Shown here: positions 22,348 to 43,932 of the stretch, piece after piece
How positions within the stretch are numbered: position 1 is the first letter of the stretch
How the letters are laid out: each line of letters starts with the position of its first letter
Assembly: GCF_018687715.1 (NCBI RefSeq)
Contig: NC_056757.1
Location: forward strand, 11,034,501-11,098,500
Length of the DNA stretch: 64,000 bases
Source: Carya illinoinensis
Taxonomy: Eukaryota > Streptophyta > Magnoliopsida > Fagales > Juglandaceae
Direction: 5' to 3'
Program-made: the position numbers and the translations under genes
Notes under the pieces: model-generated
The model's input: only the letters and a program-made list of their open reading frames with translations
Database searches by the model: none
Told to the model about the DNA's origin: nothing

Positions 22348-23358
22348 ATAAATGTGATGACCCGCTTTTACGTGTATTTTCACTGAACTGTTGTTTTTAT
22401 TTTAATTAATATATTAGTTTATTTATTTTAAATTAATGTATTTTAAATTGGTTTTAATTTATTTGATGTTGTATTTAATTTATTTTAGTCGTTTTACAGT
22501 TTTTAATATCGTTTTCGGCGGATCGGTTTTTGGTCTCCAGAGTGAGAATTGGACCTCATTTCTTTTCTTTTCTCTTTTTCTTTTTCCCTTTTCTTTTTCC
22601 TTCTTTTTCTTTCTTTTTCTTTCTTTTCTTCTTCTTTCTTCTCCTTTCTCTCCCGCGTAAGCCGAATAGCTTGTTTTTCTCCTTCCCGTCGCCGCCCCTT
22701 TGACCGCCCAGTTCTCCGCCGTCCGGCCACCGTTTGGTGCACCGTCACCACCATTCTCTTCCCCTTCCACCAGAGATCATTCCCACCAATTTTCAGAGCA
22801 ATCGGACCAGCCGTTAGCTTTCGAGAGCCGCCGGAAGTCGCTGCACCTGCTCTATTTTTACCCCTGTTGCCTGTTGCTTTCGCAGCCCAGAACCGCCGCT
22901 CGCCGGCGGCGTGGCTTACACCACCCACCCAGTTTTCTTCTCCTCTCACCGGTGAACATCCCCACCAAGTTTCACCTCCATTTAAGCCACTGTTAGCCAC
23001 CACGAGCTCCTCTAAGCCATACGGTTTTTCACCGATTCTGGTGCCGTCGCACCACCTCCGGCCACCATCTTTTCACAGCTTCTTCCCCTACCTCTTGCCA
23101 ACCTAAACCACTCATTTCCGGCCTCGATCCGTTGCCGGAGCAGCTCCCACGAGCTCAACTCCGTTCAGCCCCTTTTTGACCTTCGACCGCCATTTCCACC
23201 ACCACCCACGGCCAAAACTCGTTTCCTTTAGTTTCATAAATATCTCAAGACCATTCCCTATCAATTTCGTACCTTGGTTTGTCCCCGTTCGAAAATGGGT
23301 AATTTATTACCCACGGCGACAGTGTAAATTACACTGTTACGTTGCTTTTCTTCCGCCG

Positions 23359-24763
23359 TGTTGCCTAGATGACTAACATAAGAGGGGGGGTGAATTGAGT
23401 TGTATTAAAAAAATAACAATTATAAATCAAATATATAATATAAAATATAAACAAAATATGAAATAACAATAAATATAAAGAGTAAGGGTAAGAGAGAAGC
23501 AAACTCAGTATGTTAACGAAGTTCAGCCCCACTGCCTACGTCCTCGCCTCAAGCTACCCCTTGAGGATTCCCAAATTCACTATTCAACCTCCTTCAGGTG
23601 GAGATAGAAACCTATTACACCTTTGAACAACACCGCTACAAAGGATCCGTGTAGAACACCCTCTACACTTGTAATCACCTTACACGTGGTGATTCAACTA
23701 TTCCCTGTGTAGAATACTTTCTACACACAAGGGTTATACACACCCTTTTTCTGATACAAAAGCTGATAGTGGGTAGGTTATCAGAAAACACTCCTCAACG
23801 AGTGAAATAAGAACAATACAGCGCAAACTATATCTCTCAAAATGAACAAGGATTAAGGCTCAATGTTTAGAGAAGAGAGAATGAAAGCTTTGAATGAATG
23901 TTGTATGCTCTTGGTGTTGTGAATGTGAAGCTCTCAAATGATCTATTTATAGGCATATGAGACTTCATATTCAAATTTAAAAAGATTCACATGTCAAAGA
24001 CAACATCATTCACTTTTTCAAAAAAATTCAAATAAAAGGTTCTTCTTTTTTAATTGTCAAAGACAACATCATTCACTTTTTCAAAGAATTCAAATAAAAT
24101 GTTCTTCTTTTTCAATTGTCAAAGACAACATCATTCACTTTTTCAAAAAAATCAAACCTAATCTTTTACTTTTGGCATATGACAAAATGAGCATACTTTC
24201 ATTTTCAAAAAATTCAAACCTAATTTTTTACTTTTTGTATAAGTCTAAAAAAGCATCAATCACTTTTGAAAATATTCAAATAAAACATGCACATGTGAAA
24301 GATGACAATCAATCATCTTTAATATTTTCAAAGTTCAACCCTTTAATCAAGGCATGCACATGCAAAAGATGACAATCAATCATCTTTAATATTTTCAAAG
24401 TTCAACCCTTTAATCAAGGCATGCACATGCAAAAGATGACAATCAATCATCTTTCAAAATTTTCAAATTTAATTTTCAAAAATATTCATGCACATGTGGA
24501 AAATGTATTTTAATGCTTTATGATAAAATATTAATTTTGAGCATTAATCCTAATTTCGAATTTTGAAGAGATTTACAACATTACTCTATAATTTTAATGT
24601 GAACTTGTTCCCTTCTTGCTCATGCTTGTTTCCTTGATGTGCTTGACTCCATTGTGTAGACAACTTGAGCTTGAGACTTCTTTATTCTTTGAATTTATTT
24701 GTTATCATCAAAATCCATGTGTAAATATATAATTACACAAAACTTGAAATCTTGGGTTCAACA
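23359..24763 (-). repeat. 3' LTR of the SIRE-like Copia
   Basis: This matches 31,264-32,670 nearly base for base. It contains a minisatellite: a unit of about 67 bp beginning CATGCACATG is repeated two and a half times at about 24,285-24,455. A shorter unit around TTGTCAAAGACAACATCATT recurs three times at about 23,990-24,150. The same arrays are present in the other LTR. Confidence 0.95.
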
Positions 24764-24778
24764 ATCTCCCCCTTTTTG
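24764..24778 (-). promoter_or_regulatory. Polypurine tract
   Basis: On the minus strand AAAAAGGGGGAGAT lies directly before the 3' LTR start TGTTGAACCC. This is the expected plus-strand priming site. Confidence 0.8.
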
Positions 24779-25152
24779 TGACAAATACTTGATAGAACCT
24801 GAAACCTGAATTAATACTTAAGCTCCCTCTGAGAATGTGCGTTAGTTTTTCAAGCAAAAGTATAAATATAATTCCAAATATATATAATAAGTTTAGCAAT
24901 TCAAACGATGTTAATGTTCTAGTCTAACACTTCTCCCCCTTTTGGCATCATTAAAAAGGATCCGCAACAAGTAAATGGACCTGAAGAAAACGATGCGTTT
25001 AATAGTCACTGTAGATAGTTGAAAAATAGAGCCGTCCGTGACCCGACAAGTGCTGCAAAGCCTCGAGGCCTAACTCTATGAATTTAATACGGCTGAAGAT
25101 TTAAACAATCGCCTGATGTTGTTGACAAACGGGATTGAAGGCTCTGAGTTTC

Positions 25153-25160
25153 TATAAAAA
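25153..25160 (+). promoter_or_regulatory. Candidate TATA box of antisense ORF 1
   Basis: TATAAAAA lies 86 bases before the ATG of the antisense ORF at 25,239, in the context TCTATAAAA. The same context occurs ahead of the second antisense ORF, which supports a real promoter element. No transcript evidence is available. Confidence 0.45.
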
Positions 25161-25238
25161 AATGATCATTTTCATCTATCGGATGCCAAAAAAAATAATT
25201 ACTTCTTGACCTGAGTTCTGTTTTTCCACAACGATAGA

Positions 25239-25640
25239 ATGGCTGAGCAATTCTCTTCCACTAATGTTCCAGACTTGAATCAGGAACCCTTGACGCATCA
25301 ATCATCAATCTTCTCTCCTGAGGCCGTCAATACCATGATAGGAGCAGTGAACCGTTTTTCTAGTAAGGCTGATTCTGAGATTATTGCAGAATCAAGAATG
25401 CTCAGTAATCAATATGCTGCCTCTGTTACGATCATGTCTCGAAGGTTAATGGCGAGGGTGAGTGAGATTGATCATCTTAACATGCAAATATCTGAGTTAC
25501 GACAGAAGCTTGCTAATAAGGATAGTGAGAATAAAAGGCTAAAGCAAGAAAACCAAGAGTTGAAAAAATTTGCAGATTGGTATGCTCATGATCTGCAACC
25601 ACGAATAGAGGAGCTGGAACGAGAAAGGGTTCAGATATAA
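25239..25640 (+). CDS. Antisense coiled-coil ORF 1 with DLNxxP motif, inside Copia
   Basis: This is a 133-codon ORF on the strand opposite to gag-pol, between the pol end and the 3' LTR. Residues 12-17 read DLNQEP, an exact DLNxxP (EAR-type) motif; in plant proteins this motif recruits TOPLESS-class corepressors. From about residue 65 to 125 the sequence is a heptad-like coiled coil (EIDHLNMQISELRQKL, then ENKRLKQENQELKKF). It is related to the downstream ORF at 25,971 through a shared block (SKADSE / NKSDSD, then QYAASV / RYSSSI, then RRLMARVSEIDHL / QRLQAKNHEIEKL). After the stop the same frame stays coiled-coil-like for about 30 codons, broken by TAA, TAA and TAG where CAA/CAG would fit, so the protein may have been longer. 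Not recognised as a known family. Function unknown; the EAR role is inferred from the motif alone. Confidence 0.6.
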   Translation: MAEQFSSTNVPDLNQEPLTHQSSIFSPEAVNTMIGAVNRFSSKADSEIIAESRMLSNQYAASVTIMSRRLMARVSEIDHLNMQISELRQKLANKDSENKRLKQENQELKKFADWYAHDLQPRIEELERERVQI

Positions 25641-25823
25641 GGTTAACATCGGCAGATAACAGCAGAGGTTCATCGTTTACTAGAAAAATAGGGACAATCT
25701 ACTGTTAATCTCGCTGGCTTAGTAAGAAAACTTTTGACAATGTGTGTCCAGCATATCTTGTATTTCTTTTGACTAAATAAGATTTGAAGAGAAAATAGTT
25801 TGTCTTATTCTTTATGATATCTC

Positions 25824-25831
25824 TATAAAAT
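25824..25831 (+). promoter_or_regulatory. Candidate TATA box of antisense ORF 2
   Basis: TATAAAAT in the context TCTATAAAA lies 147 bases before the ATG at 25,971. It mirrors the box ahead of the first antisense ORF. Confidence 0.4.
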
Positions 25832-25970
25832 CAGTCCTGAAGTTCATCCAATCCGCATCAAGTTTTCATCTCATCTCTATAACTCATCTGCATTCCTTCA
25901 GCATTCTCGTTTTAAGCCTTCTATTCTTTTCTCAATTGCTCATTCTTCTAACATTTCTCTAGATCCATCT

Positions 25971-26372
25971 ATGAGGCATTCTGCATCTCAACCTCATGTT
26001 CTTTCTGCAGCTACCATTGGTGCCATGTTGCAGCAAGAAAATAATAATCTGACTAATAAGTCAGATTCTGATGCTATTTATGACTTGGTGAGTCTTGGGA
26101 CTCGCTACTCTTCCTCTATTGTGGCTTTTTCTCAGCGGCTACAAGCCAAAAATCACGAAATTGAAAAACTCAAAGAACAAATTGTTGTACTTCAACAAAT
26201 TGTTCAAGAGTCTCACACAAGGGAAGGAATCATTCGGCAGAAGAATAAACAGTTGAAATCTTTATTAGATTCTTCATTCCGCTTGCCGGTTCCCATGAAT
26301 AAGAATGACATGATATTGTATGAAGAGAATGAGCGTCTCAAACATGAGGCTAAGAATCTCAAATTTATGTAA
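25971..26372 (+). CDS. Antisense coiled-coil ORF 2, paralogue of ORF 1, inside Copia
   Basis: A 133-codon ORF, the same length as its upstream neighbour and on the same strand, ending about 50 bases from the pol stop on the other strand. The N-terminal half carries IGAML and NKSDSDAIYDL. The centre is a predicted coiled coil (QRLQAKNHEIEKLKEQIVVL, then QQIVQES). The C-terminal part is rich in Lys/Glu (EENERLKHEAKNLKFM). The alignable block with ORF 1 covers about 60 residues, so the pair probably arose by tandem duplication. The frame stays open upstream of the ATG without another Met nearby, so the start is not certain. There is no DLNxxP motif here. Family and function unknown. Confidence 0.55.
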   Translation: MRHSASQPHVLSAATIGAMLQQENNNLTNKSDSDAIYDLVSLGTRYSSSIVAFSQRLQAKNHEIEKLKEQIVVLQQIVQESHTREGIIRQKNKQLKSLLDSSFRLPVPMNKNDMILYEENERLKHEAKNLKFM

Positions 26373-26421
26373 AAGTATTAAAAAAAATCTATCTCTATTT
26401 TTATTGACTCTGGTCTATCTT

Positions 26422-27729
26422 TTAAGAGATATTCATAGCATGCATCATACCTATTTCTCTTCTGATCATACATAATCTATCTTCTGGTAAAGGTTTTGTG
26501 AAAATATCTGCTAACTGATCGTGTGTGTTTGTGAACTCTAACATTATATCACCTTTTTGCACATGATATCGAAGAAAATGATACCTTATTTCAATATGCT
26601 TAGTTCTAGAATGTTGTATTGGGTTCTTTGAAAGATTTATAGCACTTGTATTATCACATTTGATTGAAATGTGATTATACATGAGTTTAAAATCTTCAAG
26701 TTGTTGCTTCATGTAGAGAACTTGAGCACAACAACTACCCGCAGCAACATATTCTGCCTCAGCAGTAGATAGTGCAACAGAATTTTGTTTTTTACTAAAC
26801 CAGGAAACTAATGCATGACCTAAGAAATGGCATGCTCCACTAGTGCTTTTTCGATCTATTTTACAGCCAGCATAATCTGCATCTGTGTAGCTGATTAGAT
26901 CGAAAGATGTGTGCTTAGGGTACCATAACCCTAGGTTAATTGTACCACTAAGATATCTAAGAATGCGCTTAACTGCAATTAAATGTGATTCTTTTGGAGA
27001 TGATTGAAAACGTGCACATAAGCACACACTAAACATAATATCTGGTCTACTAGCTGTTAAATATAATAAGCTACCAATCATACCTCGATATATCTTCGAG
27101 TCAACTGGCTTACCGGATTCATCTTTATCAAGTTTAGTTGATGGGCTCATTGGTGTTCCAATTTCCTTAACATTTTCCATCCAAAACTTCTTCAGTAATT
27201 CCTTAATATATTTTGATTGATTGATGAATGTCCCACTTTTTGCTTGCTTAATTTGCAATCCGAGAAAGAATGTAAGTTCACCCATCATGCTCATCTCAAA
27301 TTCTTCCTGCATAGTCTTAGCAAAAACTTGACACATATTTTCATTAGTAGCACCGAATATTATATCATCAACATAAATCTGAATTAAAAGAATATCATCA
27401 TTTTCATATTTAATGAAAAGAGTTGTGTCAATTTTTCCTCTTGAAAAACCTTTTTCAATCAAGAAACCACTGAGTCTCTCGTACCAAGCTCTAGGAGCTT
27501 ATTTAAGTCCATATAGTGCTTTTGTGAGTTTGAAAACATGATTTGGGGAAATATGATTTTCAAAACCTGGAGGTTGCTCAACATATACCTCTTCATTTAT
27601 AAAACCATTTAAGAAAGCACTTTTAACATCCATTTGAAAAAGTTTGAAATCTTTATAACAAGCATATGCAAGTAGCATTCGAATAGTTTCTAATCTTGCG
27701 ACAGGTGCATATGTCTCATCATAATCGAT
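26422..27729 (-). pseudogene. Copia reverse transcriptase and RNase H, two nonsense codons
   Basis: This continues the pol frame that breaks at a TGA (27,730-27,732, after NQEE). Reverse transcriptase motifs follow: [10 protein letters not shown], then LYGLK followed by a TAA stop (27,499-27,501) where family members have Gln, then APRAWY, then the catalytic YVDDIIFG. The RNase H part has YTDADYAGC, STAEAEYVAA, CDNTSAI, SRTKHIEIRYHFLRYHV and the terminal DIFTKPLPEDR. Apart from the two stops the frame is continuous from about 27,729 to 26,422. The catalytic Asp pair is intact, so inactivation is by nonsense changes only. Confidence 0.88.
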
Positions 27730-29511
27730 TCATTCTTCTTGATTAAAACCTTGGGCTACAAGTCGGGCCTTATTTCTAGTAATGACTCCAGACTCATCTT
27801 TCTTGTTTCTAAAAACCCATTTTGTTCCAATAATAGTATAATTTTTGGGTCTAGGAACAAGTGTCCAAACATCATTTCTTTCAAATTGATTCAACTCTTC
27901 TTGCATAGCTAGAATCCAAGATTCATCAAGAAGTGCGTCATCAATATTTTTGGGTTCAATTTGAGATAGAAAAGCAGTATGATTACAAATATTTCTAAGA
28001 GATGATCGAGTACTTACACCTTTTGAAGGTTCTCCCAAAATTTGTTCCACTGGATGATCTTTCACAAATTTCCACTGTTTGGTTGCATCTTGTATTAAAT
28101 TTTGATGATCTTTCCTGATGGCTCCATGTTGAACTTCCTCTATTGCTTTCTCTTTATTGAGATTGAGACTTTCTGTGTTATTTATACCTTCTGTTTCTTC
28201 ATCAATAGATTTCTTGGAGAGTGGAGAATTAGATTCATCAAATACTACATGCATAGATTCTTGTACAGTTAAAGTCTTTTTGTTGAATACTCTATAAGCT
28301 TTACTATTAGTAGAATACCCGAGAAAAATACCTTCATCAGATTTTGCATCAAATTTGCCTAAATTATCTCTGTCATTTAAAATAAAACATTTGCATCCAA
28401 ATACATGAAAGTAACCAATGTTGGGCTTTTTCTCATTCCAAAGCTCATAGGGGGTTTTATCTAATTTAGATCTTAACATAACTCTATTTATAACATAACA
28501 TGCAGTACTTACCGCTTCGACCCAAAAATAACTAGGCAAGTTGTTCTCATTGAGCATTGTTCTTGCCATCTCTTGAAGAGATCTATTTTTTCTCTCTACT
28601 ACCCCATTTTGTTGAGGAGTTCGAGGAGCAGAAAAATTATGAATAAAACCGTTTTCATTACAAAATGTTTCAATATTTTTATTAACAAACTCTTTTCCCC
28701 TATCACTTCGGATACTTGAAATAGTATAGCCCTTTTCATTTTGAATTCTCTTGCATAACTTGGTAAAGGCATTATGTGCCTCATCTTTATGAGCAAGAAA
28801 GATGACCCAAGTATATCTAGAGAAATCATCAACAATAACAAATGTATAATATTTTCCTCCTAGACTTGCAACTCTATTTGGTCCAAAAAGATCCATGTGT
28901 ATCAGTTGCAATGGTCTAGTAGTGGAAATATGTTTCTTAATTTTAAAAGAAGTTTTTGTTTGTTTACCAAATTGACATGCATCACAAATTTTGTTTTTAA
29001 GAAAATATGTTTTTGGTAAACCTCTCACAAGATCATTTTTTGAAAGTTTGGAAATAAGTTCCATGTTGGCATGACCTAATCTTCTATGCCATAACCAACT
29101 AGTTTCATTTTGAGCTGACAAGCAAATAGCATCTTGTGAGGTAATTTCTTTAAAATCAATTGTATAAACATTATTGTTTCTAAAAGCAATAAAACAAATA
29201 TTACAATCATGATCATTAAAAATAATGCATTTATCCATTTTAAAAGTAACTGTAAATCCTTTATCACATAATTGACTTATGCTCAAAAGATTATGTTTTA
29301 AACCTTCAACAAGTAGAACATCTTCAATTATGAGAGAAGATTCATTACCAATTTTACCTATTCCCACGATCTTCCCTTTCGAGTTGTCTCCAAATGTCAC
29401 GTGTCCTTCTTCTTTAGATCTAAGATCAAAGAACTTAGTCTTGTCTCCCGTCATGTGTCTTGAACATCCACTATCTAAAAACCACTTATTTTTGCTTGTG
29501 GATGACTTCAT
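27730..29511 (-). CDS. Copia protease-integrase-reverse transcriptase N-terminus (truncated pol)
   Basis: Open for 593 codons. Near residues 13-20 is the aspartic protease motif DSGCSRHM. At about 138 is the GAG-pre-integrase motif WLWHRRLGH. A zinc-binding CDACQ segment follows. The integrase core has HMDLFGP (about 207), RSDRGKEF (about 270) and NGVVERKNRSL (about 303), supplying the D, D and E residues. The C-terminal end reaches the reverse transcriptase start (KWVFRNKKDESG, ARLVAQGFNQEE), where a TGA ends the frame. The ATG at 29,511 is in a different frame from gag, after a short gap, so expression would need its own start or a recoding or splicing step. Confidence 0.88.
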   Translation of the reverse strand: MKSSTSKNKWFLDSGCSRHMTGDKTKFFDLRSKEEGHVTFGDNSKGKIVGIGKIGNESSLIIEDVLLVEGLKHNLLSISQLCDKGFTVTFKMDKCIIFNDHDCNICFIAFRNNNVYTIDFKEITSQDAICLSAQNETSWLWHRRLGHANMELISKLSKNDLVRGLPKTYFLKNKICDACQFGKQTKTSFKIKKHISTTRPLQLIHMDLFGPNRVASLGGKYYTFVIVDDFSRYTWVIFLAHKDEAHNAFTKLCKRIQNEKGYTISSIRSDRGKEFVNKNIETFCNENGFIHNFSAPRTPQQNGVVERKNRSLQEMARTMLNENNLPSYFWVEAVSTACYVINRVMLRSKLDKTPYELWNEKKPNIGYFHVFGCKCFILNDRDNLGKFDAKSDEGIFLGYSTNSKAYRVFNKKTLTVQESMHVVFDESNSPLSKKSIDEETEGINNTESLNLNKEKAIEEVQHGAIRKDHQNLIQDATKQWKFVKDHPVEQILGEPSKGVSTRSSLRNICNHTAFLSQIEPKNIDDALLDESWILAMQEELNQFERNDVWTLVPRPKNYTIIGTKWVFRNKKDESGVITRNKARLVAQGFNQEE

Positions 29512-29569
29512 GCATACCTATAAAAACAATTAAAATGATTTTTCTTGGTACCCAAGTTCTTTGGGTCCT

Positions 29570-31204
29570 TTATTTATTAGTATTAGAATAAACAAGATTT
29601 TTAGGTACCCATATGGCCCTAATAGTCATTGTATGATTTCTTCTAATAGGACAAGTATGATAATTATGACCATTTCTATTACAAAAATTACAAATAGCAT
29701 GTGACATATATGAAAAACTTGAATGATTATAATAATATCCTTTTTTGACAAAATTATTTTTATGAAAAGAATTTTGAATATTAGTCTTTGAGGTAGAATG
29801 ATTATCAAAGAAATTTTTATAAGGTTTGTATTTTTGTTTTGGCATATATCCCAAACCTGCCTTGTCAAAAACACATCTTTGACTACCAAGAAGTTTTTCA
29901 AAATTTCTTTTTCCATTCGTAAAGTTTTCAACAATATTTTCTAAATCGGTTTTCTTCTTATTCAATTCAAGATTTTCATCTTTCAAAATGATACTTTCTT
30001 TTCTTAAAATTTCAATTTCGTTTGTTAAAGAAGAATTTTTCTTTTTCAAAGCAGTATACTTGATACCCAATTTTTCAAATTCCTCATAAATCTCTTCTAA
30101 AACATTTTGCAATTCTTCATATGAAAGATTTTCAATATTATCAAGATTTGTTACCTCAATGTCATCTTTAGCCATAAGACAAAGATTTGCTGATTCTTCA
30201 TTGCTTGCTTCACTATCTGAGCTACTTGAATCATCATCCCATGTAGCTTTCATTGCTTTCTTGCCCTTGTTTCGATCTTTCTTTAGCAGAGGACAATCTG
30301 GCTTGATATGACCAGGTTTATTGCATTTATAACAAATTAAAGTGTCGTTTTTACCTGAATCTTTCTTGAAAAACTTTTTGAAAGATTTCCTCGGAGGAGT
30401 TCTATTTTTCTTCAAGAACCTCTGAATTCTTCTTGTTATCATCGCAACTTCTTCATCTTTATCGTCATTTTCCTCATCTTCATCACTTTCACTTTCATGA
30501 GGAACAACTTTAAGTGCTAAGCTCTTCTTTGGCTTTCCTTCTTCTTCTCCTCTTTTCAATGTGTACTCATGGGTGATAAGTGACCCGATGAGTTCATTGA
30601 CTTCGAGCTTCTTGAGGTCTCTAGCTTCAAGAATCGCTGTAACTTTTGATTCCCAATGTTTTGGTAAAGAGTTGAGAATTTTTCTTACTATCTCCACCTT
30701 GGAATAAACTTTGCCAAGAGCTGTCAAGCTGTTTATGATGTTAGTAAAACGAGTGTGCATACTAGAAATAGATTCATCATCATTCATCTTAAACATTTCA
30801 TATTCATGAGTAAGAATATAAATTTTTGATTCCTTGACTTGCGAAGTTCCTTCATAAGTTACTTCCAAGTTATCCCAAATTTCCTTTGCTGTAGCGCAAT
30901 TCATTATTCTATTAAACTCATTTCCATTAAGAGCATTATATAATAAATTCATAGCAGTTAAATTTAAAGTATAAAGTCTATCGTCTTCACGATCAAACTC
31001 TTCTTCTTCCTTTTTGACCTTTACTCCACCAACCACTTTTGTTGGAATATAAAGTCCATTTACAATACATTTCCATATTTCTCTACCTTGAGCTTGAAGA
31101 AATATTCTCATTCTAACTTTCCAGAATGAGTAATTATCTCCACAAAAGAGTGGAGGCCGACTACTAGATTGACCTTCACCAAATGAAGCTGCAATGTTAG
31201 CCAT
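29570..31204 (-). CDS. Copia gag, 544 codons
   Basis: The N-terminus (PPLFCGDNYSFWKVRM) is of the DUF4219 type. Residues about 80-215 match UBN2/gag (NLEVTYEGTSQVKESKI, then ILNSLPKHWESKV). A CCHC zinc knuckle, CYKCNKPGHIKPDC, lies near residue 295, and a second Cys/His cluster CNFCNRNGHNYHTC is near the end. Between them is an acidic, Ser-rich segment and a long coiled coil (about 360-430). The ATG is about 60 bases downstream of the 5' LTR, just past the primer-binding site. The ORF is intact. The product would form the virus-like particle shell in the cytoplasm. Confidence 0.9.
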   Translation of the reverse strand: MANIAASFGEGQSSSRPPLFCGDNYSFWKVRMRIFLQAQGREIWKCIVNGLYIPTKVVGGVKVKKEEEEFDREDDRLYTLNLTAMNLLYNALNGNEFNRIMNCATAKEIWDNLEVTYEGTSQVKESKIYILTHEYEMFKMNDDESISSMHTRFTNIINSLTALGKVYSKVEIVRKILNSLPKHWESKVTAILEARDLKKLEVNELIGSLITHEYTLKRGEEEGKPKKSLALKVVPHESESDEDEENDDKDEEVAMITRRIQRFLKKNRTPPRKSFKKFFKKDSGKNDTLICYKCNKPGHIKPDCPLLKKDRNKGKKAMKATWDDDSSSSDSEASNEESANLCLMAKDDIEVTNLDNIENLSYEELQNVLEEIYEEFEKLGIKYTALKKKNSSLTNEIEILRKESIILKDENLELNKKKTDLENIVENFTNGKRNFEKLLGSQRCVFDKAGLGYMPKQKYKPYKNFFDNHSTSKTNIQNSFHKNNFVKKGYYYNHSSFSYMSHAICNFCNRNGHNYHTCPIRRNHTMTIRAIWVPKNLVYSNTNK

Positions 31205-31249
31205 AAGATCTTAACTCAAAAGATAGTTAATCTTATAATAGAGCTCTTA

Positions 31250-31261
31250 GCTCTGATACCA
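31250..31261 (-). promoter_or_regulatory. Primer-binding site, initiator tRNA-Met type
   Basis: The minus strand reads TGGTATCAGAGC, two bases after the 5' LTR terminus CAACA. Confidence 0.92.
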
Positions 31262-31263
31262 AT

Positions 31264-32670
31264 TGTTGCCCAGATGACTAACACAAGAGGGGGGGTGAAT
31301 TGAGTTGTATTAAAAAAAAATAACAATTATAAATCAAATATATAATATAAAATATAAACAAAATATGAAATAACAATAAATATAAAGAGTAAGGGCAAGA
31401 GAGAAGCAAACTCAGTATGTTAACGAGGTTCGGCCCCACTGCCTACGTCCTCGCCTCAAGCTACCCCTTGAGGATTCCCAAATTCACTATTCAACCTCCT
31501 TCAGGTGGAGATAGAAACCTATTACACCTTTGAACAACACCGCTACAAAGGATCCGTGTAGAACACCCTCTACACTTGCAATCACCTTACACGTGGTGAT
31601 TCAACTATTCCCCGTGTAGAATACTTTCTACACACAAGGGTTATACACACCCTTTTTCTGATATAAAAGCTGATAGTGGGTAGGTTATCAGAAAACACTC
31701 CTCAACGAGTGAAATAAGAACAATACAGCGCAAACTATATCTCTCAAAATGAACAAGGATTAAGGCTCAATGTTTAGAGAAGAGAGAATGAAAGCTTTGA
31801 ATGAATGTTGTATGCTCTTGGTGTTGTGAATGTGAAGCTCTCAAATGATCTATTTATAGGCATATGAGACTTCATATTCAAATTTAAAAAGATTCACATG
31901 TCAAAGACAACATCATTCACTTTTTCAAAAAAATTCAAATAAAAGGTTCTTCTTTTTTAATTGTTAAAGATAATATCATTCACTTTTTCAAAGAATTCAA
32001 ATAAAATGTTCTTCTTTTTCAATTGTCAAAGACAACATCATTCACTTTTTCAAAAAAATCAAATCTAATCTTTTACTTTTGGCATATGACAAAATGAGCA
32101 TACTTTCATTTTCAAAAAATTCAAACCTAATTTTTTACTTTTTGTATAAGTCTAAAAAAGCATCAATCACTTTTGAAAATATTCAAATAAAACATGCACA
32201 TGTGAAAGATGACAATCAATCATCTTTAATATTTTCAAAGTTCAACCCTTTAATCAAGGCATGCACATGCAAAAGATGACAATCAATCATCTTTAATATT
32301 TTCAAAGTTCAACCCTTTAATCAAGGCATGCACATGCAAAAGATGACAATCAATCATCTTTCAAAATTTTCAAATTTAATTTTCAAAAATATTCATGCAC
32401 ATGTGGAAAATGTATTTTAATGCTTTATGATAAAATATTAATTTTGAGCATTAATCCTAATTTCGAATTTTGAAGAGATTTACAACATTACTCTATAATT
32501 TTAATGTGAACTTGTTCCCTTCTTGCTCATGCTTGTTTCCTTGATGTGCTTGACTCCATTGTGTAGACAACTTGAGCTTGAGACTTCTTTATTCTTTGAA
32601 TTTATTTGTTATCATCAAAATCCATGTGTAAATATATAATTACACAAAACTTGAAATATTGGGTTCAACA
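31264..32670 (-). repeat. 5' LTR of the SIRE-like Copia
   Basis: About 1,407 bp, TGTTGAACCC...GGCAACA in element orientation. It carries the same minisatellite arrays as the other LTR and abuts the duplicated target CGCCG on its outer side. Confidence 0.95.
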
Positions 32671-33895
32671 CGCCGTTTGCAACGCCGCAAGCTTTCTAAA
32701 AATACCATATAGCGCTGTAAGTATTTTCCAAACCCTATTTTTCGATTTAAATATATATTGCTCATTCAATAATTTTATCTGTTGGTTGACTGATTCCGGA
32801 CTGAATCCGAGGAGTTCGGGGGTTGGATGGATGGAAGACGGAGTTGCTTATTTTATTGATATATGTTGGTTGTTTATTTTTGCATATCGATATTGTATTT
32901 ACATGGTGCATGCACGTGTGTTTTTGTTTAATTGAGAAAAGCCTGTTTATTGGCGTACGTGGACTTACGGGTGTGTGTGTATCACGACCCCAAGCCGGGA
33001 TGGGGTATTATCTAGGTGGAGCTCCTCTGGTCACTCGGGAGCGGAATAAACTGAGTGATGTCCCCTGGGTCGTCGCTGGGCAACGACGGGAGCGGGGGCT
33101 AGGGGATGCTTGGCTACGAATGCGCCGGGCGCGGAACCGGGCATCGCCCTACGCACCGACTCCGTGGCCCTTCGCTGGTGAGGGCTAGAAGATGCTTGGC
33201 TACGAACACGCGGGGCGTGGAACTGGGCATCGCTCGTTAGGTGTCACATGCGTGGTGGTACTCTGCGGTGTGGCACTGGAGCCAGGGTGTGCAGATGACC
33301 CCTAGGGGAGGTCATGGTGCATATGGATAAAATGGTTTTTGGTTTGAGATGAGTAAAGGCCAAATGTGACTTTTGGCGTGTTTTTGGAACGGGTTTGTTG
33401 TTGGGCCAAATGAGATTTTTGGCGTGTGTGGAAATTGTGATTTTATGGGTTTTACGCATTGGCATTAATTCATGCATATTGTTTGAGTTCTATATGCTTT
33501 TATATGGTGGTGTTTGGATTTTACTTACCTGCAGTACCATATTTGGTTCCGTAGATTTTGGTGCAGGATTCGAGAAGGAGGAGGAGGCTGAGCCCGAGGA
33601 TGCGGCTCTGCCGGAGTTTTGATGTCGAAGTTATGCTTTATAGTTTGGTTTAAAACTATATTTGTGTTTTTGTAATATTTTAATTATGTATGTTTTAAAC
33701 AGCTTGTATTATATTAAGAAAATTCTGGTACTTACTTATATGACTTTCGTTATCCGCTGCGTGTTCATTCGTGCACATTTGTTGCTTTTGTACACACTTG
33801 GCACTCGTCGATAGGGTGGTGACCCGGGTTGTCACCATCCGGACGTCTCGATTTTTCCGTGTCCGTGCGTGGAGATTTGGGGGCGTCATAGTAAA

Positions 33896-34509: not shown

Positions 34510-36523
34510 TGAAAAGGGACTTGATTGAATCGCACACACTACTTTACAAAAGGGCCTTATTTATATAGAGCCCAATAAAATAACGTACAAAGCATCTCCT
34601 AAACAATGTGGGATTTGATGGACTAGTTTAACCCGCCCCCTCAAACTCAAGTTGGTTTCTAAGATGGAGTACGGGAAACCAACTTGAGTTTGGTAACAAG
34701 ATCGTGAAACCTTTCCAAAGGATGCAACTTGGTAAAAATATCTACGAGTTGATCATGAAAAGTAATGGAATGAAGTTGCAGTGAGCTTTGAAAAAGAATG
34801 TGACGGATAAAATGACAATCAATTTCAATATGCTTAGTCAATTTGTAAAAAATATCATTGCGGACAATTTGAATAGCGCTCATGTTGTTGAGGTATACAA
34901 GAGTTATGTGTATGAGAAGGAGACACTCATTTTTTTAATAGTCAATGCAACCAAAGAAGTTTGGATGTAATGTTTGCAAGTGAATAGTAATATTCGACCT
35001 TAGTGCTAGATGGCGCAATTGCAATTTGTTTCTTATTACGCCAAGAGACAAGGGAATTACCAACTAGAAAAAAATTAGCTCTACAACATTGATTTATAGG
35101 ATCACCTACACAATTGGCATCAGCATAAACTAGTTGAAGAGGAGATCATATGTAAACCATGAAGCAATGTCTATTTGAGATAGTGAAGAATGGAGCATGG
35201 AGCAACTATGAATTGACTCGCTTGATGCACAACACATGAAATATTGGGTTGGGTAATAGTAAGATAGACAAAACTATTGTCAAATATTGACACAAAGTGG
35301 GATCTTGAAAAGGTTTGCTGTCATCAGGATTGAGGTGAGCATTGAGTTTAGTTAGTGTTTTAGTGATCGTATAATCTGTTACGTTGGCATGTGAGAGGAG
35401 ATCATGATAAGTTTGTTTGGTCTAACTCAGATAGGAACCAGCAAAGGCAAAGGAAAACTCAAGGAGTCAAGACCAAGAAAATAACTAAGAGGTCCAAGGT
35501 CGTTCATCTCAAAGTACTGGCTAAGGTATTGCTTTAGCTCCTAAAAATCTGATAAGATTGTCTCCATTGATAACCATGTCATTTACATATAGCAAAAGAA
35601 GAATGGTGCCTCTGGATATGCGATGAATAAACAGGGCTGTCATCGGAGCTAATGGAGTAGACAAGACTAAAGACAGTGGTGCATGCTGAACTTTGCAAAC
35701 TAAGTTTTAGGATGAGAAATCCAATCAGCGGCTACATATATACTTCTTCACTAAGATCGCCATTAAGTAAGATATTTCTTACATCCATTTGGGAAAGGAA
35801 CCAATAACAAGAGACCGGACATCCAAAAGAGCATGGACAGAAGAGATACAGGCAATAGGAGCAAAGGTCTCTTCATAATCTATATTCTTGAGTAAATCTT
35901 TTGGCCACAACCTTGTACCTATCAACAAAACCATCAGAGCGACTCTTAATTTTAAAGACCCATTTATATCCTGCAATAGAATTTCCTGGACGTAAGTCAA
36001 GTAGGCACCAAATACAACTCTTGGATAAAATATCAAATCTCTCTTTCATCATAGCATACCAAAGAGGGTCAGTGGAAGTCTCATGATTGGAGTGAGGTTT
36101 ATGCAAGTCAGTTAAAGCATGAAAACAATGAAGATCATGGAGATGTGATGGGAGAGGCCTTACCCGAGTGGAACGATAAAGGTTAGAGTATAGGAAGATA
36201 GGAGTAAGAGGTGGAGAAGAATTGTGTGGCAATGGAAAAATGTGGAATAGATGGCATGTCATGAAACTTGCCAACCTTGTGGAAAAACCGATGTTCTCAG
36301 AACTCGGAAGACTACATGGCGGGAATTATGAGACGACATGACACGAGATGATAACACCTATAGCTTTTTGCTCAGTCCCACCATATCCAAGAAAGCAACA
36401 CAATCAAGAACTGTGCTCGAGTGAGCTGCACTTATGCAGTTGTAGTGAAACAAACAAGCAGAATCACGTATGTGCAGGTAATGATAAGTGGGAAAAGAAG
36501 CCGAACAACTTGTCATAAGAAGT

Positions 36524-36934
36524 TGTTAAATGGAGGGGGCGCCCACACGGGCAGACCCCCCCTTTATTGCTGCATGCGTTATAACGCATGGCTTAAAGCC
36601 ATGCGTTACACAGCCGGTAAACGCATGGCTTTAAGCCATGCGTTTCCAGCGTATTGAAGGCTGGCCTTTAAGGCCAGCCGTGTAGGGGGGCTATATATAG
36701 CCCCCCTCCTTTTGATATTGATGCATCAATCACAATAGTGAAAATCTCTCTCTCACTTGTTCTCTCTTGAAATAGTTTATAGGCTGTGGATTTATTAAGT
36801 GTTACTCTAGTTTTATAATTACGTAGTACACTTTACCACTAAGAGAAAACGCTTGATTTTTTGTCGCGCTGGAGAAACTTGTGGAGCATTTCTTTAAGCT
36901 AAGCCTGAGGTACTTTTCACTGTGCATTCTTATA
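36524..36934 (+). repeat. 5' LTR of the young Copia, with palindrome cluster
   Basis: 411 bp. Inside are four near-perfect or perfect palindromes: 36,573-36,590 (18 bp), 36,583-36,607 (12-bp arms), 36,619-36,645 (13-bp arms) and 36,659-36,679 (10-bp arms). A fifth, 36,685-36,706, is GGGGGGC-TATATATA-GCCCCCC with the TATA sequence at its centre. The last is the most likely core promoter. Confidence 0.93.
36691..36700 (+). promoter_or_regulatory. TATA box inside a 22-bp palindrome
   Basis: CTATATATAG flanked by G6 and C6, identical in both LTRs. It lies about 230 bp before the LTR end and is the only TATA-like word in the LTR at a sensible promoter position. Confidence 0.6.
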
Positions 36935-36935
36935 T

Positions 36936-36947
36936 TGGTATCAGAGC
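36936..36947 (+). promoter_or_regulatory. Primer-binding site, initiator tRNA-Met type
   Basis: TGGTATCAGAGC begins one base after the LTR end. Confidence 0.93.
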
Positions 36948-37075
36948 ATGTATTTTAATTGCTTCCAGTTTCTTTTTGGTATATGCATGTAAATTGTGAT
37001 TTTTTTTTTATTTGCACACATGTGGTGTTGCAGTTTAAAAAAAAAAAAAAAGTTTTTTTTGGCCGAAGCCGCTGC

Positions 37076-37440
37076 AGTGGTGCAGCGCTCACCACCCTTA
37101 CACGGTGGTGCAGCGCGCACCACTCCTCCACCTGGTGGTGCAGTGCGCACCACCTGAGCATGGTGGTGCAGCGCGCACCGTAGGGTGCTGCGCGGCACCC
37201 CTGCAATGGTGCTGCGCGCACCACGGTGCCGCATGCACCGACTGGAGCCCACGGTGCATAGTGCACCATGGAGGCACCCAGTGGTGCTGCAAGCACCGCC
37301 TCGGTGCTGCGCACACCAGGACGGTGCTGCGCGCACCAGAGGGGTGCTACAAGCACCACCGTGGTGCTGCCAGCACCAACGTGGTGCTGCGCGCACCACC
37401 CACGTGCTGCAAGCACCTCCTTAGGTGCTGCGGCAGCACC
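37076..37440 (+). repeat. Tandem array of mini-hairpin units in the Copia leader
   Basis: About 16 imperfect units of roughly 17-30 bp follow one another. Most contain GGTGC, then a 4-6 base loop such as TGCGC or TGCAA, then GCACC. Each could fold into a short stem-loop, and adjacent units could also pair. The array lies between the primer-binding site and gag, in the region that in retroelements usually holds packaging or dimerisation signals. It is GC-rich in an AT-rich element. Open frames across it on both strands are artefacts of the repeat. Confidence 0.85.
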
Positions 37441-37588
37441 CAGCCTCCTCCGGAGGTTTTTTCCGACGAACAGAGGCGCTGGTAACCTCTTGAAACGGCG
37501 GCTGTGTTTTGCTGGTTTTGCAGTTACTGTTCACGTGAACAGTAACTGCTGGAGGATGAAGATGACCACTGTCATCTGTTTTTTGTTG

Positions 37589-37780
37589 CATGGGCTTGGG
37601 CCCTTCGGCCCACTGTTTTTTGTTGCATGGGCTTGGGCCCTTCGGCCCACAATGTTTTTATATAAAAAAAAAAAAAAAAAGGCTGGGCTTTTAAGCCCAG
37701 TGTTTTTTTCTGTAAGTTTTTTTATTAAAAACTGGAAAAAGTGTTTTTTTTTTTTATTAAAAACTGGAAAAAGTGGCACA
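37589..37780 (+). repeat. Short direct repeats in the Copia leader
   Basis: A block around GGGCTTGGGCCCTTCGGCCCA is present twice (about 37,589-37,611 and 37,629-37,651). TTTTTATTAAAAACTGGAAAAAGTG is also present twice, at about 37,718-37,742 and 37,751-37,775. Confidence 0.8.
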
Positions 37781-37846
37781 ATGGGTTTTGAACCCAAGAC
37801 CTACCACTATACTAAGGAGAGGGCGCACCACTGGGCTGCGAATATT
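37781..37846 (-). other. tRNA-like fragment in the Copia leader
   Basis: The minus strand reads TAGTATAGTGGTAGG (box A-like) and, 6 bases on, GGTTCAAAACC, which matches the box B consensus GGTTCRANNCC and has flanking bases that form a T-arm stem. The spacing is far too short for an anticodon arm, so this is not a working tRNA. It may be a tRNA-derived or SINE-like relic. Confidence 0.4.
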
Positions 37847-38229
37847 CTTTGGTTTAGGTGGGGGTTTTAAATGTTTTTATAATAGTTTTTGTTAAATAAT
37901 AATAAAAAAAAAAAATTTTGGCATGATTCAATATATGCTTAGATATATTGTTATATTACATGTGATCTTTTATTTAATATGATAGATTAAATGTGATAAC
38001 ATGTGAATATTTGTTTATTTTCATGCTATTTTTTTTTTCTTCATAATGTCATAATACATGTGATCTTTTATTTAATTTTTTAGAATTAAATGTGATAACA
38101 TGTATGTGTATATTGAACATGTGGAAATATGATTATTTTATCATCTATGAATGTTAGACTTGAATGTTTAGACATTAGTCTTTATTTCTTTTAGTGATAA
38201 AATAGAAAATCCCACTAAGTAGTCTTAGT

Positions 38230-38560
38230 TAGAATTGTCAATGTGAATGATAGGCTGAAAGAATTGCAGTGACCCCAGTAAGAACTGTAAATGCATTGTA
38301 TAGCCAAAAGACCATGGTGACCCCAGTAAGAACTGTAAATGCACTGCATAGCCAAAAGGACTACAGTGGCCCCAGTAAGAACTGTAAATGCACTGATGGG
38401 ACAAGAAAAATGGACTGTAATGGTCTCATATGAACCATCTTTGTAGATTGGCCCAACAGGTTGCTGTAGTCTGGCTGTCTTTGTAGACTGGCCCAACAGG
38501 TTACTATGGTCTGGGTAGCTGTCCTTGTAGATTGGCCCAAAAGGTTACTGCGGTTTTAGT
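38230..38560 (+). repeat. Two tandem repeat families in the Copia leader
   Basis: A unit of about 53 bp containing CCCCAGTAAGAACTGTAAATGCA occurs three times (about 38,270-38,400). A unit of about 42 bp around TTTGTAGATTGGCCCAACAGG occurs three times (about 38,440-38,560). Both lie upstream of the gag ATG. Confidence 0.8.
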
Positions 38561-38843
38561 AGGTTATGTCTTTACATATGACTAGGCCTAGATGACTACT
38601 TAAGATAGTGGGAGTATGGTTGAGATTTATGATGATAAATTCTCCCATATTCGTTTTTTAAAATTTGCGCGGGAATTGAGTTAGAAATCTAATAATTGGA
38701 TATTGTGGCGCAAGAGATGATTCTGAAGCCTAGCGATTTTTCGATCTTGCGACATGTCTAAATTATTCTTTTTCTAACTTGAAAGGACGCGGCAGATTTC
38801 TTAGGTGTGTGAGTAATATCCATTCTTTGCGTATTGTAGTGAA

Positions 38844-41800
38844 ATGGCATCCAAAAATATTGTTGCCGACTTAAACAAAGGGGAGAAATTAGATGTGGAA
38901 AACTATGACATATGGCATCGCAAGATTCAATATGTCTTAGATGAGCAAGAGGTCTTGGAGGCCTTATCTCACACCCTTACTATGCCTGAGGAAGGGAACT
39001 CAGAACAACACAAGATAGATCAACAAGCCTATACCCAATGGGCTAAGAAAAATCGGTGTGCGCGCATAATTATGTTAAGCAGCATGCACAATGATCTAAT
39101 GTGTGAGTTCAAGGTCTATGACACTGCCCAAAGCATGTGGGAGGCTTTGAAGTTAAAGTTTGGTGGGACTTCAGCCACTAGGTTGCGTGGATTAACCATG
39201 AGGTTCGACTCCTATAAGATGCGCTCTGACCATACGATGAAGCAGCATCTTAGGGCTATGTCAACTATGATCCGCGAACTTAGATCGGCAGGAAACAACC
39301 TGACAGATGAACAGCAAGTACAGGCAGTGATAAGATCACTACCGAATTCTTGGGAGAACATGAGCCAGAATTTGACGCATAACGAGAATATCAAAGACTT
39401 TGATGATGTCTCGCGTCATTTGGAATTGGAGGCTGAGCGCCTAGAGGCTGCTAAGCCCAATCATACGGCCTATGTGGCTAATGCTGGTTCGCGCAAGGCA
39501 TCAAGGCCTAAGCGCAAAAAGCCCAAGAATGGAGTGGCTGCTGGACATATTAAAAAAGTGTCAGGAACTTCTCAGCGCACCAAGAGGGGCAAGCGCGGGA
39601 AAAACAAGTCAAAATTAGAGTGCTTCAACTGCGGAAAAATTGGCCACTTCGCTCGTGACTGCACTGAGCCGAAGAAGGTACACTCTGACTTTTCTCGCAT
39701 TGTTTTTGTAACTAGCCATGTGATGGTTGCTGACTCCTATCCTTTGTGGACTGTTGATTCAGGAGCGACCGAGCACATAGCGCGAGATAGAGTCGAATTT
39801 GTGGAGTATCGCCGGATTCCAACTGGGAGCCGTGATATCAAGGTGGGGAATGGAGCTAGCATGGAGGTACTGGGACTTGGTACCTACAAGCTGGACTTAC
39901 GGGGTGGCCGCACTCTTTTTCTCCACAATGTGCTATACGCTCCCGAGATCCGACGAAACTTACTTTCAGTTGTCACTCTATTAAAACTTGGTTTTCGGAT
40001 TGTTTTTGAAAACAATTATGTTTCCTTTCATTTGGGCCATGTGTTTTATGGCAATGCTTTTCTTCAAGACGGTTTTATGATATTGGATTTGGTTTATTCT
40101 AATATAAATGAATCTATTGCTTTTATTTCTTCATCTATTGATAATTTGGATTCATACACATGGCATGCTAGGCTTGGCCATATAGGGCAAGATAGAATGA
40201 CTCGATTAGTTAGAGAAGGCCTAATAGGCAATCTCGCTAAGGTCATCTTGCCCACGTGTGAACATTGTCTAATGGGAAAAGCTAAGAGAAAACCATTTGG
40301 AAAAGCCACTAGGGCATCTTTTCCACTGCAATTAGTTCACTCAGACATCTATGGTCCAATGAGTGTGAGGGCAAGACACGGAGGTGTCTACTTCATCACT
40401 TTTATAGATGATTTTTCACGTTACGGTCATATCTACTTAATCTCCCATAAGTCTGAAGCATTGGAATGTTTTAGGCGATATCTAAGAATGGTTGAGAATC
40501 AAGTAGATAAGAGTTTAAAAACTCTAAGAACTGACCGAGGACGAGAATATCTCTCTGAGCAATTTAAAAGGCTCTGTGATGAAAAAGGAATCAAAAGACA
40601 GTTAACGATGCCAAGTACGCCACAGCAAAATGGCGTGGCGGAAAGGAGAAATCGAACACTGCTTGAGATGGTTAGGTCAATGATGGCGCAAGCAAACCTA
40701 CCAATTTCTTTTTGGGGGGATGCACTTTTGACTGCTGCCTACATTCTTAACCGAGTGCCCTCCAAATCAGTAACTTCCACTCCATATGAACTATGGACCG
40801 GCGAGAAACCTAATTTGAGTAACTTGCGGCCATGGGGTTCAACGGGTTTTGTTCATGATCTTTCTCATAAGTATGGGAAATTAGGCCCTAGAGGGAAGAA
40901 GTGTATCTTTATAAGGTACTCAGAACACTCTAAAGGGTATATGTTAATAGGTGAACAAACTGATGGAAGTGTAACTGAGATTGAATCACGAGATGTGGAC
41001 TTCATTGAAAATGAATTTCCAAGTAGAGGTGAGGTTGACAGGAGTTTAGAACTTCATGAGATTGTGGAACAAGAAGAAAGTGCTCCAAGGAATTTAGTTG
41101 AGAATGAGGAAGAAATTCTTCAAGCTCCTACAAATGATAAAAGGGACTTAAATCCGAGTGGGAGCACACCGCTTGTCAATCAATCACAACAACCTCAGCC
41201 GCGTAGAAGCACATGTGAAAGTATTCCCCGTCGTCGTTTTGAGATTGAAGGGGAAGCTTTTATGGTAGCTCCGCATGATGATGATGAGCCTAGGACAATT
41301 CATGAGGCTCTCTCATCTTCTACTAAAGATGAGTGGATGAAAGCTCTTAATGATGAAATTGAGTCTATGAAGACTAACCAGGTCTGGGATCTGGTTGATC
41401 TACCGACAGGGCGTAAGACTATTGGGAACAAATGGGTTCTTAAAGTCAAACGCAAGTCGGATGGATCGATAGATAAGTACAAAGCTCGCTTAGTGGCGAA
41501 AGGATATACCCAACAGGAGGGTATAGACTATGAGGAAACTTTTTCACCAGTGGTGAGATTTGCTTCAATTCGCCTGATTCTAGCTATAGTAGCAAACATG
41601 GATTTGGAACTCTACCAAATGGATGTTAAGACAGCATTTCTCAATGGAGAACTAGATGAGGAGATTTATATGGATCAACCAACGGGTTTTGTGGTCAAAG
41701 GTCAAGAGCGCAAAGTGTGCAAGCTCAAACGATCAATATATGGCCTAAAACAATCATCTAGGCAATGGTACCTCAGATTCCATCGAGCCGTTCTTTCGAA

Positions 41801-42851: not shown

Positions 42852-43922
42852 ATGTTTTTTGTGTTTCAAATGACATTGAGATGTAACCTTTTCTTTGGGA
42901 TATTAATACAATATGATTCAGTTATTGTCTTTATTGTATTGTCTTTCTAATTCACACACAAGATATGTCAACAGGTTTAGATCGGCTCACTCACACGAGC
43001 GATCGCCTCTAGCGCTTGAGAAGCGAGTAGAGATGAGACATTGTGTTCTAAGATACTTGTCCAAGTGGAAAAGTTAGTTGACACAAAGATATGTCGGTTT
43101 TAGTGGGAGCTAAGATCAGGTCCAATGAGAGGACTATGCATGGGTTACCCCACAACCTATGTAGCCTGTGGTTAGCCAGATGTGAGATCCTCTTTGACAC
43201 CTTGGAGGTGAGCAAATAGAGGAACTCGGGTTAGACGCTTTAGGAGCGACTAGACTAAGATCTGTACGGTGTTGATATAGACATATGCTCTTTAAAAAAG
43301 AAAAGAGAAATCCACCGTAGCATGTATTTCATACTACATGTGCTTATTCAACCAAATGAGTAAGTGAGTAAATGGTTCTCCTCTTTCTCACTGTGTGAGT
43401 CTCATTTTTTTTTAAGTGTCCTTTACTTTTGACTATGTCACAAGATGGAGGTTATAATGTCTGCTACTTTGGCATGTTGTCTATGGCCATGATTAATACG
43501 GTCTAAAGAGGCATTGCTAGGAAAGCGGTTTGACCAAAATTGAATCATATGAGAGTAAAGGGAAGATTCTTCGATATCGCATCTTCGATAGTGTTTGCTG
43601 ACGTCAAACTATGACGCTACATACAGGTAGCGACTAAGGTTGTGAACATATTGAAATGATTTAGAGATAGTCAAGCATTGTTCTGAGTTTTCTGAAACTC
43701 AAGAGGGTTTCGAAAATGCTTGAACTAATGCGATCGAATGAGTCTAGGACATAACCAAACACTTTAGGGATGTTACTATGCTAGTCTTCTCTGGGAGAGA
43801 TTTAGTGTATGTACTCCCACCTTTCTGAAGATATGCTTGGTGGTCGCACGACCTATTTACTTGTGTGAACAAGATTGAGAACATTAGAGAGATGCAGACC
43901 TAGGGTCATGCCCATTGTGTGC
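42852..43922 (+). other. Long 3' untranslated region of the young Copia
   Basis: About 1.07 kb lies between the gag-pol stop and the polypurine tract, with no open frame carrying a known domain on either strand. Confidence 0.7.
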
Positions 43923-43932
43923 GAGTGGGAGA
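43923..43932 (+). promoter_or_regulatory. Polypurine tract
   Basis: GAGTGGGAGA lies directly before the 3' LTR start TGTTAAATGG. Confidence 0.8.

What the first reader, a model, noticed from the sequence alone, without database searches (positions are those of the whole stretch)
24764..26421. Antisense gene pair inside a Copia retrotransposon
Between pol and the 3' LTR of the SIRE-like element, two 133-codon ORFs lie on the strand opposite gag-pol. They are similar to each other over about 60 residues and both are coiled-coil rich, so they look like a tandem duplication. Antisense accessory ORFs are known in some Gypsy (Tat/Ogre) lineages, and SIRE Copia elements can have a sense env-like ORF. 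A duplicated antisense coiled-coil pair in a Copia element is not something I recognise. It could be a captured host gene or a regulator of the element.
Basis: partly seen in the sequence, partly recalled or inferred. Interest (0 to 1): 0.88.

Follow-up and report, generated by a model that had tools for sequence, protein, structure and literature searches.

The report
Antisense coiled-coil genes in Copia retrotransposons
An abundant plant jumping gene carries, on the strand opposite its own genes, two related small genes that are intact in most of the copies examined and likely serve the element as accessory proteins, and one of the two has a relative inside a second, stripped-down jumping gene of the same genome.

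Summary
The window contains a 9.3-kb Sirevirus-type Copia element on the minus strand (LTRs 98.9% identical, TSD CGCCG), with two related genes antisense between pol and the 3' LTR. The 133-codon lengths reflect damage in this copy: elsewhere in the genome the proteins are 150 aa (ORF1) and 145 aa (ORF2).

In 110 fetched copies plus the window, ORF1 is intact in 108, ORF2 in 99, both in 97. Copies were found and ranked by ORF1, so only the ORF2 figure is roughly unbiased.

Public data hold 20 related proteins, full-length ORF2-types down to about 47% identity with a shared C-terminus. ORF2 shows purifying selection: dN/dS about 0.35 against a diverged subfamily, and amino-acid changes depleted among variants shared by copies (p = 0.028). 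ORF1 alone is not significant.

Unexpectedly, that diverged subfamily sits antisense inside a different Copia element (5.3 kb in the one copy spanned): short LTRs, a gag ORF, only pol remnants. Leader and TATA box are alignable too, so a promoter-plus-gene cassette appears shared by two Copia families.

Antisense accessory ORFs are described mainly in Gypsy elements; nine library searches showed none in Sireviruses. Expression and biochemical function are untested.

The parts
23354..23358 (.). Target-site duplication CGCCG, left
23359..24763 (-). 3' LTR of the Sirevirus-type Copia element
   Evidence: 98.9% identical to the other LTR, 13 mismatches and 1 gap opening in 1407 columns
24766..24773 (-). 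Polypurine octamer AGGGGGAG, starting 10 bp before the 3' LTR
   Evidence: motif as described in PMC2829016
24933..24940 (-). Second AGGGGGAG octamer in the linker
25153..25159 (+). TATAAAA, candidate promoter of ORF1, 86 bp before its ATG
   Evidence: identical in 87 of 91 copies
25239..25640 (+). Antisense ORF1 as left in this copy (133 codons; 150 aa in intact copies, where the frame runs to 25688)
25824..25830 (+). TATAAAA, candidate promoter of ORF2, 111 bp before its usual start
   Evidence: identical in 91 of 91 copies
25935..26372 (+). Antisense ORF2: frame of 145 codons in relatives; in this copy open from an inner ATG at 25971
26422..27462 (-). pol, 3' piece (end of reverse transcriptase, RNase H region)
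   Evidence: PF07727; RNase H assigned from position and recall
27730..29511 (-). pol, 5' piece (pre-integrase, integrase, start of reverse transcriptase)
   Evidence: PF13976, PF00665, PF07727
29570..31204 (-). gag
   Evidence: PF14223, PF00098
31250..31261 (-). Primer binding site TGGTATCAGAGC
   Evidence: tRNA-Met type is recalled
31264..32670 (-). 5' LTR
32671..32675 (.). Target-site duplication CGCCG, right

Best explanation
The pair is two tandemly duplicated antisense genes of a high-copy Sirevirus; ORF2 evolves as a protein under purifying selection, both products are predicted to be coiled-coil proteins, and they are likely made from their own internal TATA promoters as accessory factors that would help the same element copy replicate. 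Shown here: position, relatedness of the two, ORF2 beside ORF1 in all 111 copies compared (intact in 99), non-neutral evolution of ORF2, and a related gene with an alignable TATA/leader in a Copia family that has a gag ORF but only pol remnants. Predicted: one long helix with a hydrophobic period near 3.5 residues, and so a dimer or oligomer. Inferred: transcription from the internal TATA boxes, antisense to the LTR-driven genomic RNA, which would let the proteins be made independently of the LTR. Inferred with least support: the proteins act as adaptors on the element's own Gag/RNA particle or on its chromatin; my pattern found no basic cluster that would suggest direct nucleic-acid binding, and an element that keeps this gene and gag but not pol fits a partner that stays with its own RNA while polymerase is borrowed.
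For: ORF2 intact in 99 of 111 copies that were picked by ORF1, not ORF2; in the first 30 loci ORF2 is intact in 28, as is a 233-codon pol piece (28). pol on the opposite strand and LTR adjacent in 30 of 30. ORF2 variants: single-copy 13 synonymous to 49 other, shared 8 to 8, p = 0.028; pol control 8:36 and 4:1, p = 0.010. dN/dS 0.34-0.37 against the diverged subfamily in 8 of 8 loci. P0010 at 53% identity has a 20-residue identical run where 2000 neutral runs reach 17. TATA boxes at fixed distance; leader match between the two families reached in 1 and 6 of 1000 shuffles for the two loci tried. Helix; period. Second carrier with LTRs, TSD, gag and pol remnants. No sense ORF in the linker that could explain the conservation.
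Against: No transcript or protein was seen. ORF1 variants show no significant trend (26:33 and 7:4, p = 0.33), and ORF1 found only one database relative. Two stop variants of ORF2 are shared by two copies each, so loss may not block copying, or those copies are segmental duplicates. Of 7 relatives at 44-57% identity other than P0010 (P0011-P0017), none has an identical run beyond the neutral range, and only P0011 and P0012 exceed the neutral maximum of conservative changes. About 59 of 150 diverged-subfamily copies have in-frame stops (hand count). The ORF1 and ORF2 leaders do not resemble each other beyond chance. Low pTM (0.41, 0.46). Whether Sirevirus copies without the ORFs exist was not tested, since copies were found by ORF1.
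Confidence: 0.68

Rival explanations
1. The antisense transcription, not the protein, matters: an RNA from the internal promoters pairs with the sense genomic RNA and tunes or silences the element; the ORFs are incidental.
For: TATA boxes are conserved; antisense control of this kind is discussed for other elements (PMC7264820, parts 1-2 of 3).
Against: Selection is seen on codons, and the conserved block and C-terminus are protein features. Could act in addition to a protein.
Confidence: 0.12
2. A host coiled-coil gene was captured, inverted, by a Copia element and is carried along, with or without use to the element.
For: Own TATA box and leader, compact gene; generic coiled-coil profile hits.
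Against: No host relative among 20 proteins found; no profile above its cut-off. The examined copies lie in LTR elements. An origin by capture long ago is not excluded.
Confidence: 0.1
3. Young-family passenger: the ORFs look intact only because the copies are recent, and nothing selects for them.
For: Fetched copies are 96.6-98.6% identical to the window over the linker (30 loci), and single-copy ORF2 variants look neutral (13 to 49).
Against: Relatives near 50% identity keep the frame and C-terminus, and dN/dS is about 0.35 at dS about 0.9.
Confidence: 0.06
4. The sequence is a displaced or inverted env-like gene of the Sirevirus, read from the wrong strand.
For: SIRE elements often carry a sense extra ORF at this place (74%, PMC6317226, passages).
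Against: The sense strand is closed, and the family matches, with starts and stops, only on the + strand.
Confidence: 0.02

Closest known systems
Antisense additional ORFs (aORF-3R) of plant Gypsy elements: Grande gene23, RIRE2, Retand ORF4, PvRetro13 (PMC7264820 parts 1-2 of 3; PMC11963269 and PMC4093653 passages)
   Same: [quoted passage not shown] an own promoter is reported for Grande gene23 (through PMC7264820; the original was not read) and is likely here.
   Different: Copia, not Gypsy; two small paralogues of 145-150 aa; no Transposase_28 domain; a related gene in a second, pol-deleted Copia family.
Sirevirus (SIRE) elements with a sense extra or env-like ORF (PMC2829016, PMC6317226, passages)
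   Same: Same lineage marks: PPT octamers, one starting 10 bp before the 3' LTR and a second copy in the linker.
   Different: The linker has no sense ORF over 61 codons; antisense genes occupy it instead.
Antisense HBZ gene of HTLV-1 (features recalled; PMC7264820 mentions the antisense promoter of HTLV)
   Same: Antisense gene in the 3' part of a retroelement, product with a dimerising helix.
   Different: HBZ has a basic DNA-binding region and starts in the 3' LTR (recalled); my pattern found no basic cluster in either protein and the candidate promoters lie in the linker. No sequence relation was seen or searched for beyond the family and structure libraries.

Membership tests
Sirevirus (for the element) | AGGGGGAG octamer 10 bp upstream of the 3' LTR | tested here: met
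   24773-24766, LTR starts at 24763; feature from PMC2829016 passages
Sirevirus (for the element) | More than one octamer copy in the linker | tested here: met
   Two copies; the paper gives four on average
Sirevirus (for the element) | Branching with SIRE in RT/INT trees | not tested
   No reference set of plant Copia domains was at hand
Sirevirus (for the element) | Sense env-like/extra ORF (common, not obligatory) | tested here: not met
   Longest open sense run 61 codons
Antisense additional ORF (aORF-3R) | ORF antisense to gag-pol, between pol and 3' LTR | tested here: met
Antisense additional ORF (aORF-3R) | Present in most copies of the family | tested here: inconclusive
   ORF2 beside ORF1 in 111 of 111, but copies were found by ORF1
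Antisense additional ORF (aORF-3R) | Own antisense transcript | not testable with these tools
   Only TATA boxes seen
Retand-type antisense ORF | Transposase_28 domain (PF04195) | tested here: not met
   Not among the hits for the two window proteins (E up to 0.1) or 13 family members (E up to 0.01)
HBZ-like antisense bZIP regulator | Basic region before a leucine zipper | tested here: not met
   No basic cluster by the pattern used; net charge -3 and +2 (P0001, P0002)

The most novel reading that the evidence does not exclude
A compact antisense gene cassette, promoter plus a 145-aa coiled-coil protein, has moved between distinct Copia lineages and is a dedicated, cis-favouring replication factor: in one lineage it was duplicated beside an ordinary gag-pol, in another it persists in a gag-only element that has lost most of pol, making it a new class of retrotransposon accessory gene.
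Probability: 0.38. Interest if true: 0.85.

Novelty: new variant of a known kind. Interest (0 to 1): 0.7.

Why it matters
What plant antisense accessory ORFs do is an open question, and the ones named in the papers I saw are in Gypsy elements. Here is a small, conserved, duplicated version in an abundant Copia family, with a natural experiment beside it: a related gene in an element that keeps a gag ORF but only pol remnants. Because ORF2 shows the same loss of amino-acid changes with variant frequency as pol, it can be asked directly whether an antisense product helps its own copy. It also shows that surveys with a 250-codon cut-off would miss such genes.

Tried and rejected
Chance ORFs: rejected. 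Similarity of ORF1 and ORF2 as a coiled-coil artefact: rejected by shuffles that keep the heptad register. Origin from the element's own Gag coiled coil: no support, scores lie within the shuffles. DNA similarity between the ORF1 and ORF2 leaders: not significant (163 of 1000 shuffles reach it). Pfam and NCBIfam hits to coiled-coil families: all below their cut-offs, taken as generic. PDB sequences: best E 0.019, a coiled-coil stretch. Fold search: no PDB match for the ORF2-type model, 37 viral matches for the ORF1-type model, none with E up to 0.001. Viral contigs: no relative. TQT motif (recalled as LC8-binding): absent from P0001, P0002 and this Gag. Pfam on four pol-side frames of the second family gave nothing useful; the remnants rest on weak tblastn matches and, for the RNase H end, a 35% match to this element's pol, E = 3.6e-4. 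P0016 in the own genome: best 67% identity among 150 scored places, so P0016 probably comes from another species. dN/dS between ORF1 and ORF2 themselves (0.56) is saturated (dS 1.5) and not used.

Full report
What is there. The window lies in a 674-Mb genome of 17 contigs. The only named protein matches are Carya illinoinensis, up to 97% identical, so the host is likely a Carya; no tool names it. On the minus strand at 23359-32670 sits a Copia element with LTRs of about 1.4 kb, 98.9% identical, a 5-bp duplication CGCCG on both sides, a TGGTATCAGAGC primer site, and two AGGGGGAG octamers in the linker, one starting 10 bp before the 3' LTR. These octamers are the published Sirevirus mark (PMC2829016, passages). 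Gag and pol domains are in Copia order; pol is split into two frames in this copy. The 1.66-kb linker between pol and 3' LTR has no sense open run longer than 61 codons.

The antisense pair. Two + strand ORFs occupy the linker. Two ORFs of this size occurred in none of 5000 simulated linkers and one in 25. They are paralogues. Compared with relatives, this copy is damaged in both: ORF1 closes early and ORF2 lacks its usual start. A TATAAAA box lies 86 bp before ORF1 and 111 bp before the usual ORF2 start, unchanged in 87 and 91 of 91 copies.

How common. A protein search for ORF1 in the own genome gave 4262 first-look candidates; the best 150 were scored, all with E below 1e-78 and 149 without an internal stop. 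I fetched 110 of the 150 (30 with 3.4 kb, 80 with about 2 kb) and added the window. ORF1 is intact in 108, ORF2 in 99, both in 97 of 111. Ranking was by ORF1, so only the ORF2 number is roughly unbiased, and copies without ORF1 could not be seen. In the 30 longer loci pol is on the opposite strand and the LTR adjacent in 30 of 30. A 233-codon pol piece is intact in 28 of 30, equal to ORF2 (28 of 30).

Selection. (a) Neutral simulation to 54% identity (2000 runs): an open frame survives in 32 runs, the longest identical run is 17, conservative changes make up 31% (sd 6, maximum 51%). P0010 (53% identical) has an open frame, a run of 20 and 48% conservative changes. The seven others at 44-57% (P0011-P0017) have runs of 6-10, within the neutral range, and 45-58% conservative changes; P0011 and P0012 exceed the neutral maximum. 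Database entries are open frames by selection, so openness alone is weak. (b) Among 107 copies, after dropping four tandem-array neighbours, single-copy variants of ORF2 are 13 synonymous to 49 others (5 stops) and shared variants 8 to 8 (2 stops), p = 0.028; ORF1 gives 26:33 and 7:4, p = 0.33. An earlier count on 91 copies without dropping gave 9:41 and 8:8, p = 0.020. The pol control on 30 copies gives 8:36 and 4:1, p = 0.010. A fall of this ratio with variant frequency was reported for maize Sireviruses and read as a sign that products favour their own copy (PMC9073684, abstract and outline). (c) ORF2 of L001 against the diverged subfamily: dS 0.87-0.96, dN 0.31-0.33, ratio 0.34-0.37 for 8 of 8 loci; bootstrap of pN/pS for one pair 0.37-0.68. 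Within that subfamily the ratio is 0.17, but its eight loci were picked by protein similarity, so I do not lean on it.

A second carrier. The P0010-type gene, about 54% identical to ORF2, has 4559 first-look candidates in the same genome, of which 150 were scored, at 91-98% identity. About 59 of the 150 have in-frame stops (hand count). In 8 of 8 fetched loci neither the Sirevirus octamer nor a P0001-type neighbour is found. Around one of them (L112 with flanks L119 and L120) I find LTRs of about 240 bp, 95.4% identical, with a 5-bp duplication ATATT, spanning 5262 bp; a minus-strand Copia gag ORF (PF14223, E = 1.7e-6); short, weak reverse transcriptase and RNase H remnants (46-53 aa, 35-38% identity); and the gene on the + strand between them. 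The RNase H remnant was found on the opposite strand in 8 of 8 loci (one only in part), and sequence of the short LTR on its far side in 8 of 8. Gag and the second LTR were looked for in L112's flanks only. So an antisense gene of this family sits in two structurally different Copia elements. The leader upstream of the ATG, TATA box included, is alignable between them: score 33, reached in 1 of 1000 shuffles, for L112, and 27, reached in 6 of 1000, for L114; the other six loci were not aligned. The ORF1 leader shows no such match (306 and 123 of 1000). Whether the cassette moved sideways or both elements inherited it is undecided.

The protein. Twenty proteins form the family in public data; most come from short contigs (588-2400 bases) of unnamed origin, a size that would fit assembled transcripts, but neither strand nor kind of source could be checked. 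AlphaFold gives a long helix (residues 44-113 of the ORF2-type, 45-149 of the ORF1-type; mean pLDDT 80 and 83, pTM 0.41 and 0.46) with a hydrophobic period of 3.45-3.5 residues, as in coiled coils. The block around DAIYELVSLGTRYSSSIVAFSQRLQ and the C-terminus LKF[LM] are the most conserved parts. No domain, fold or motif names a function.

Most likely mechanism. I read the pair as accessory genes with their own promoters. The proteins would oligomerise and act as adaptors for the element's own replication, on its Gag/RNA particle or on its chromatin. Presence beside a gag ORF in an element with only pol remnants favours a partner of Gag or RNA (inference). Everything beyond ORF2 selection, position, duplication and sharing is untested.

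Literature. Antisense aORFs are described for Gypsy elements (PMC7264820, parts 1 and 2 of 3; PMC11963269, passages). The broad survey counted extra ORFs of at least 250 codons, found in 582 Copia elements and sorted into 45 groups, and in the passages I read names only the forward type as typical of SIRE (PMC6317226, passages); its additional files were not seen. Nine searches of the open library showed no listing of an antisense gene in a Sirevirus or of one shared between Copia families; subscription papers are mostly not covered. PMC4093653 (passages) lists two Copia families with an extra ORF of 381 and 393 aa; PMC11728184 (passages) deals with Gypsy aORFs of sunflower.

Noticed in passing
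window 36521-44336 (+): A second Copia element 4 kb away: direct repeats 97-98% alike at 36521-36939 and 43930-44336, and one uninterrupted gag-pol ORF of 1335 aa at 38844-42851. The antisense family has no convincing match in it.
   Followed up: partly
window 37077-37442: G+C-rich tandem arrays of 20-60 bp units built on GGTGCTGC..GCACC palindromes, between the first repeat and gag of the second Copia element.
   Followed up: no
window 23992-24467 and 31899-32374: Both LTRs of the Sirevirus hold 62- and 67-bp tandem arrays.
   Followed up: no
L027, L036, L047, L096 (C1:15282240, 15290082, 15297924, 15305766) and L078, L079 (C5): Element copies spaced 7842-7843 bases apart in one orientation, as if in tandem with shared LTRs; left out of the variant count except one each.
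   Followed up: partly
L118 3134-3309: A second copy of the short LTR sequence close to the antisense gene, which suggests a shortened version of the second element.
   Followed up: no
window 46361-47377 (-): Frame with an RMMBL domain (PF07521, E = 2.2e-14), probably an exon of a host metallo-beta-lactamase RNA nuclease gene.
   Followed up: no
window 52281-53336 (-): Reverse transcriptase of the RVT_1 type (PF00078), probably a LINE remnant (LINE is an inference).
   Followed up: no
window 2147-3007 (-): Fragment of another Copia pol (PF22936, and PF13976 below its gathering score or near it).
   Followed up: no
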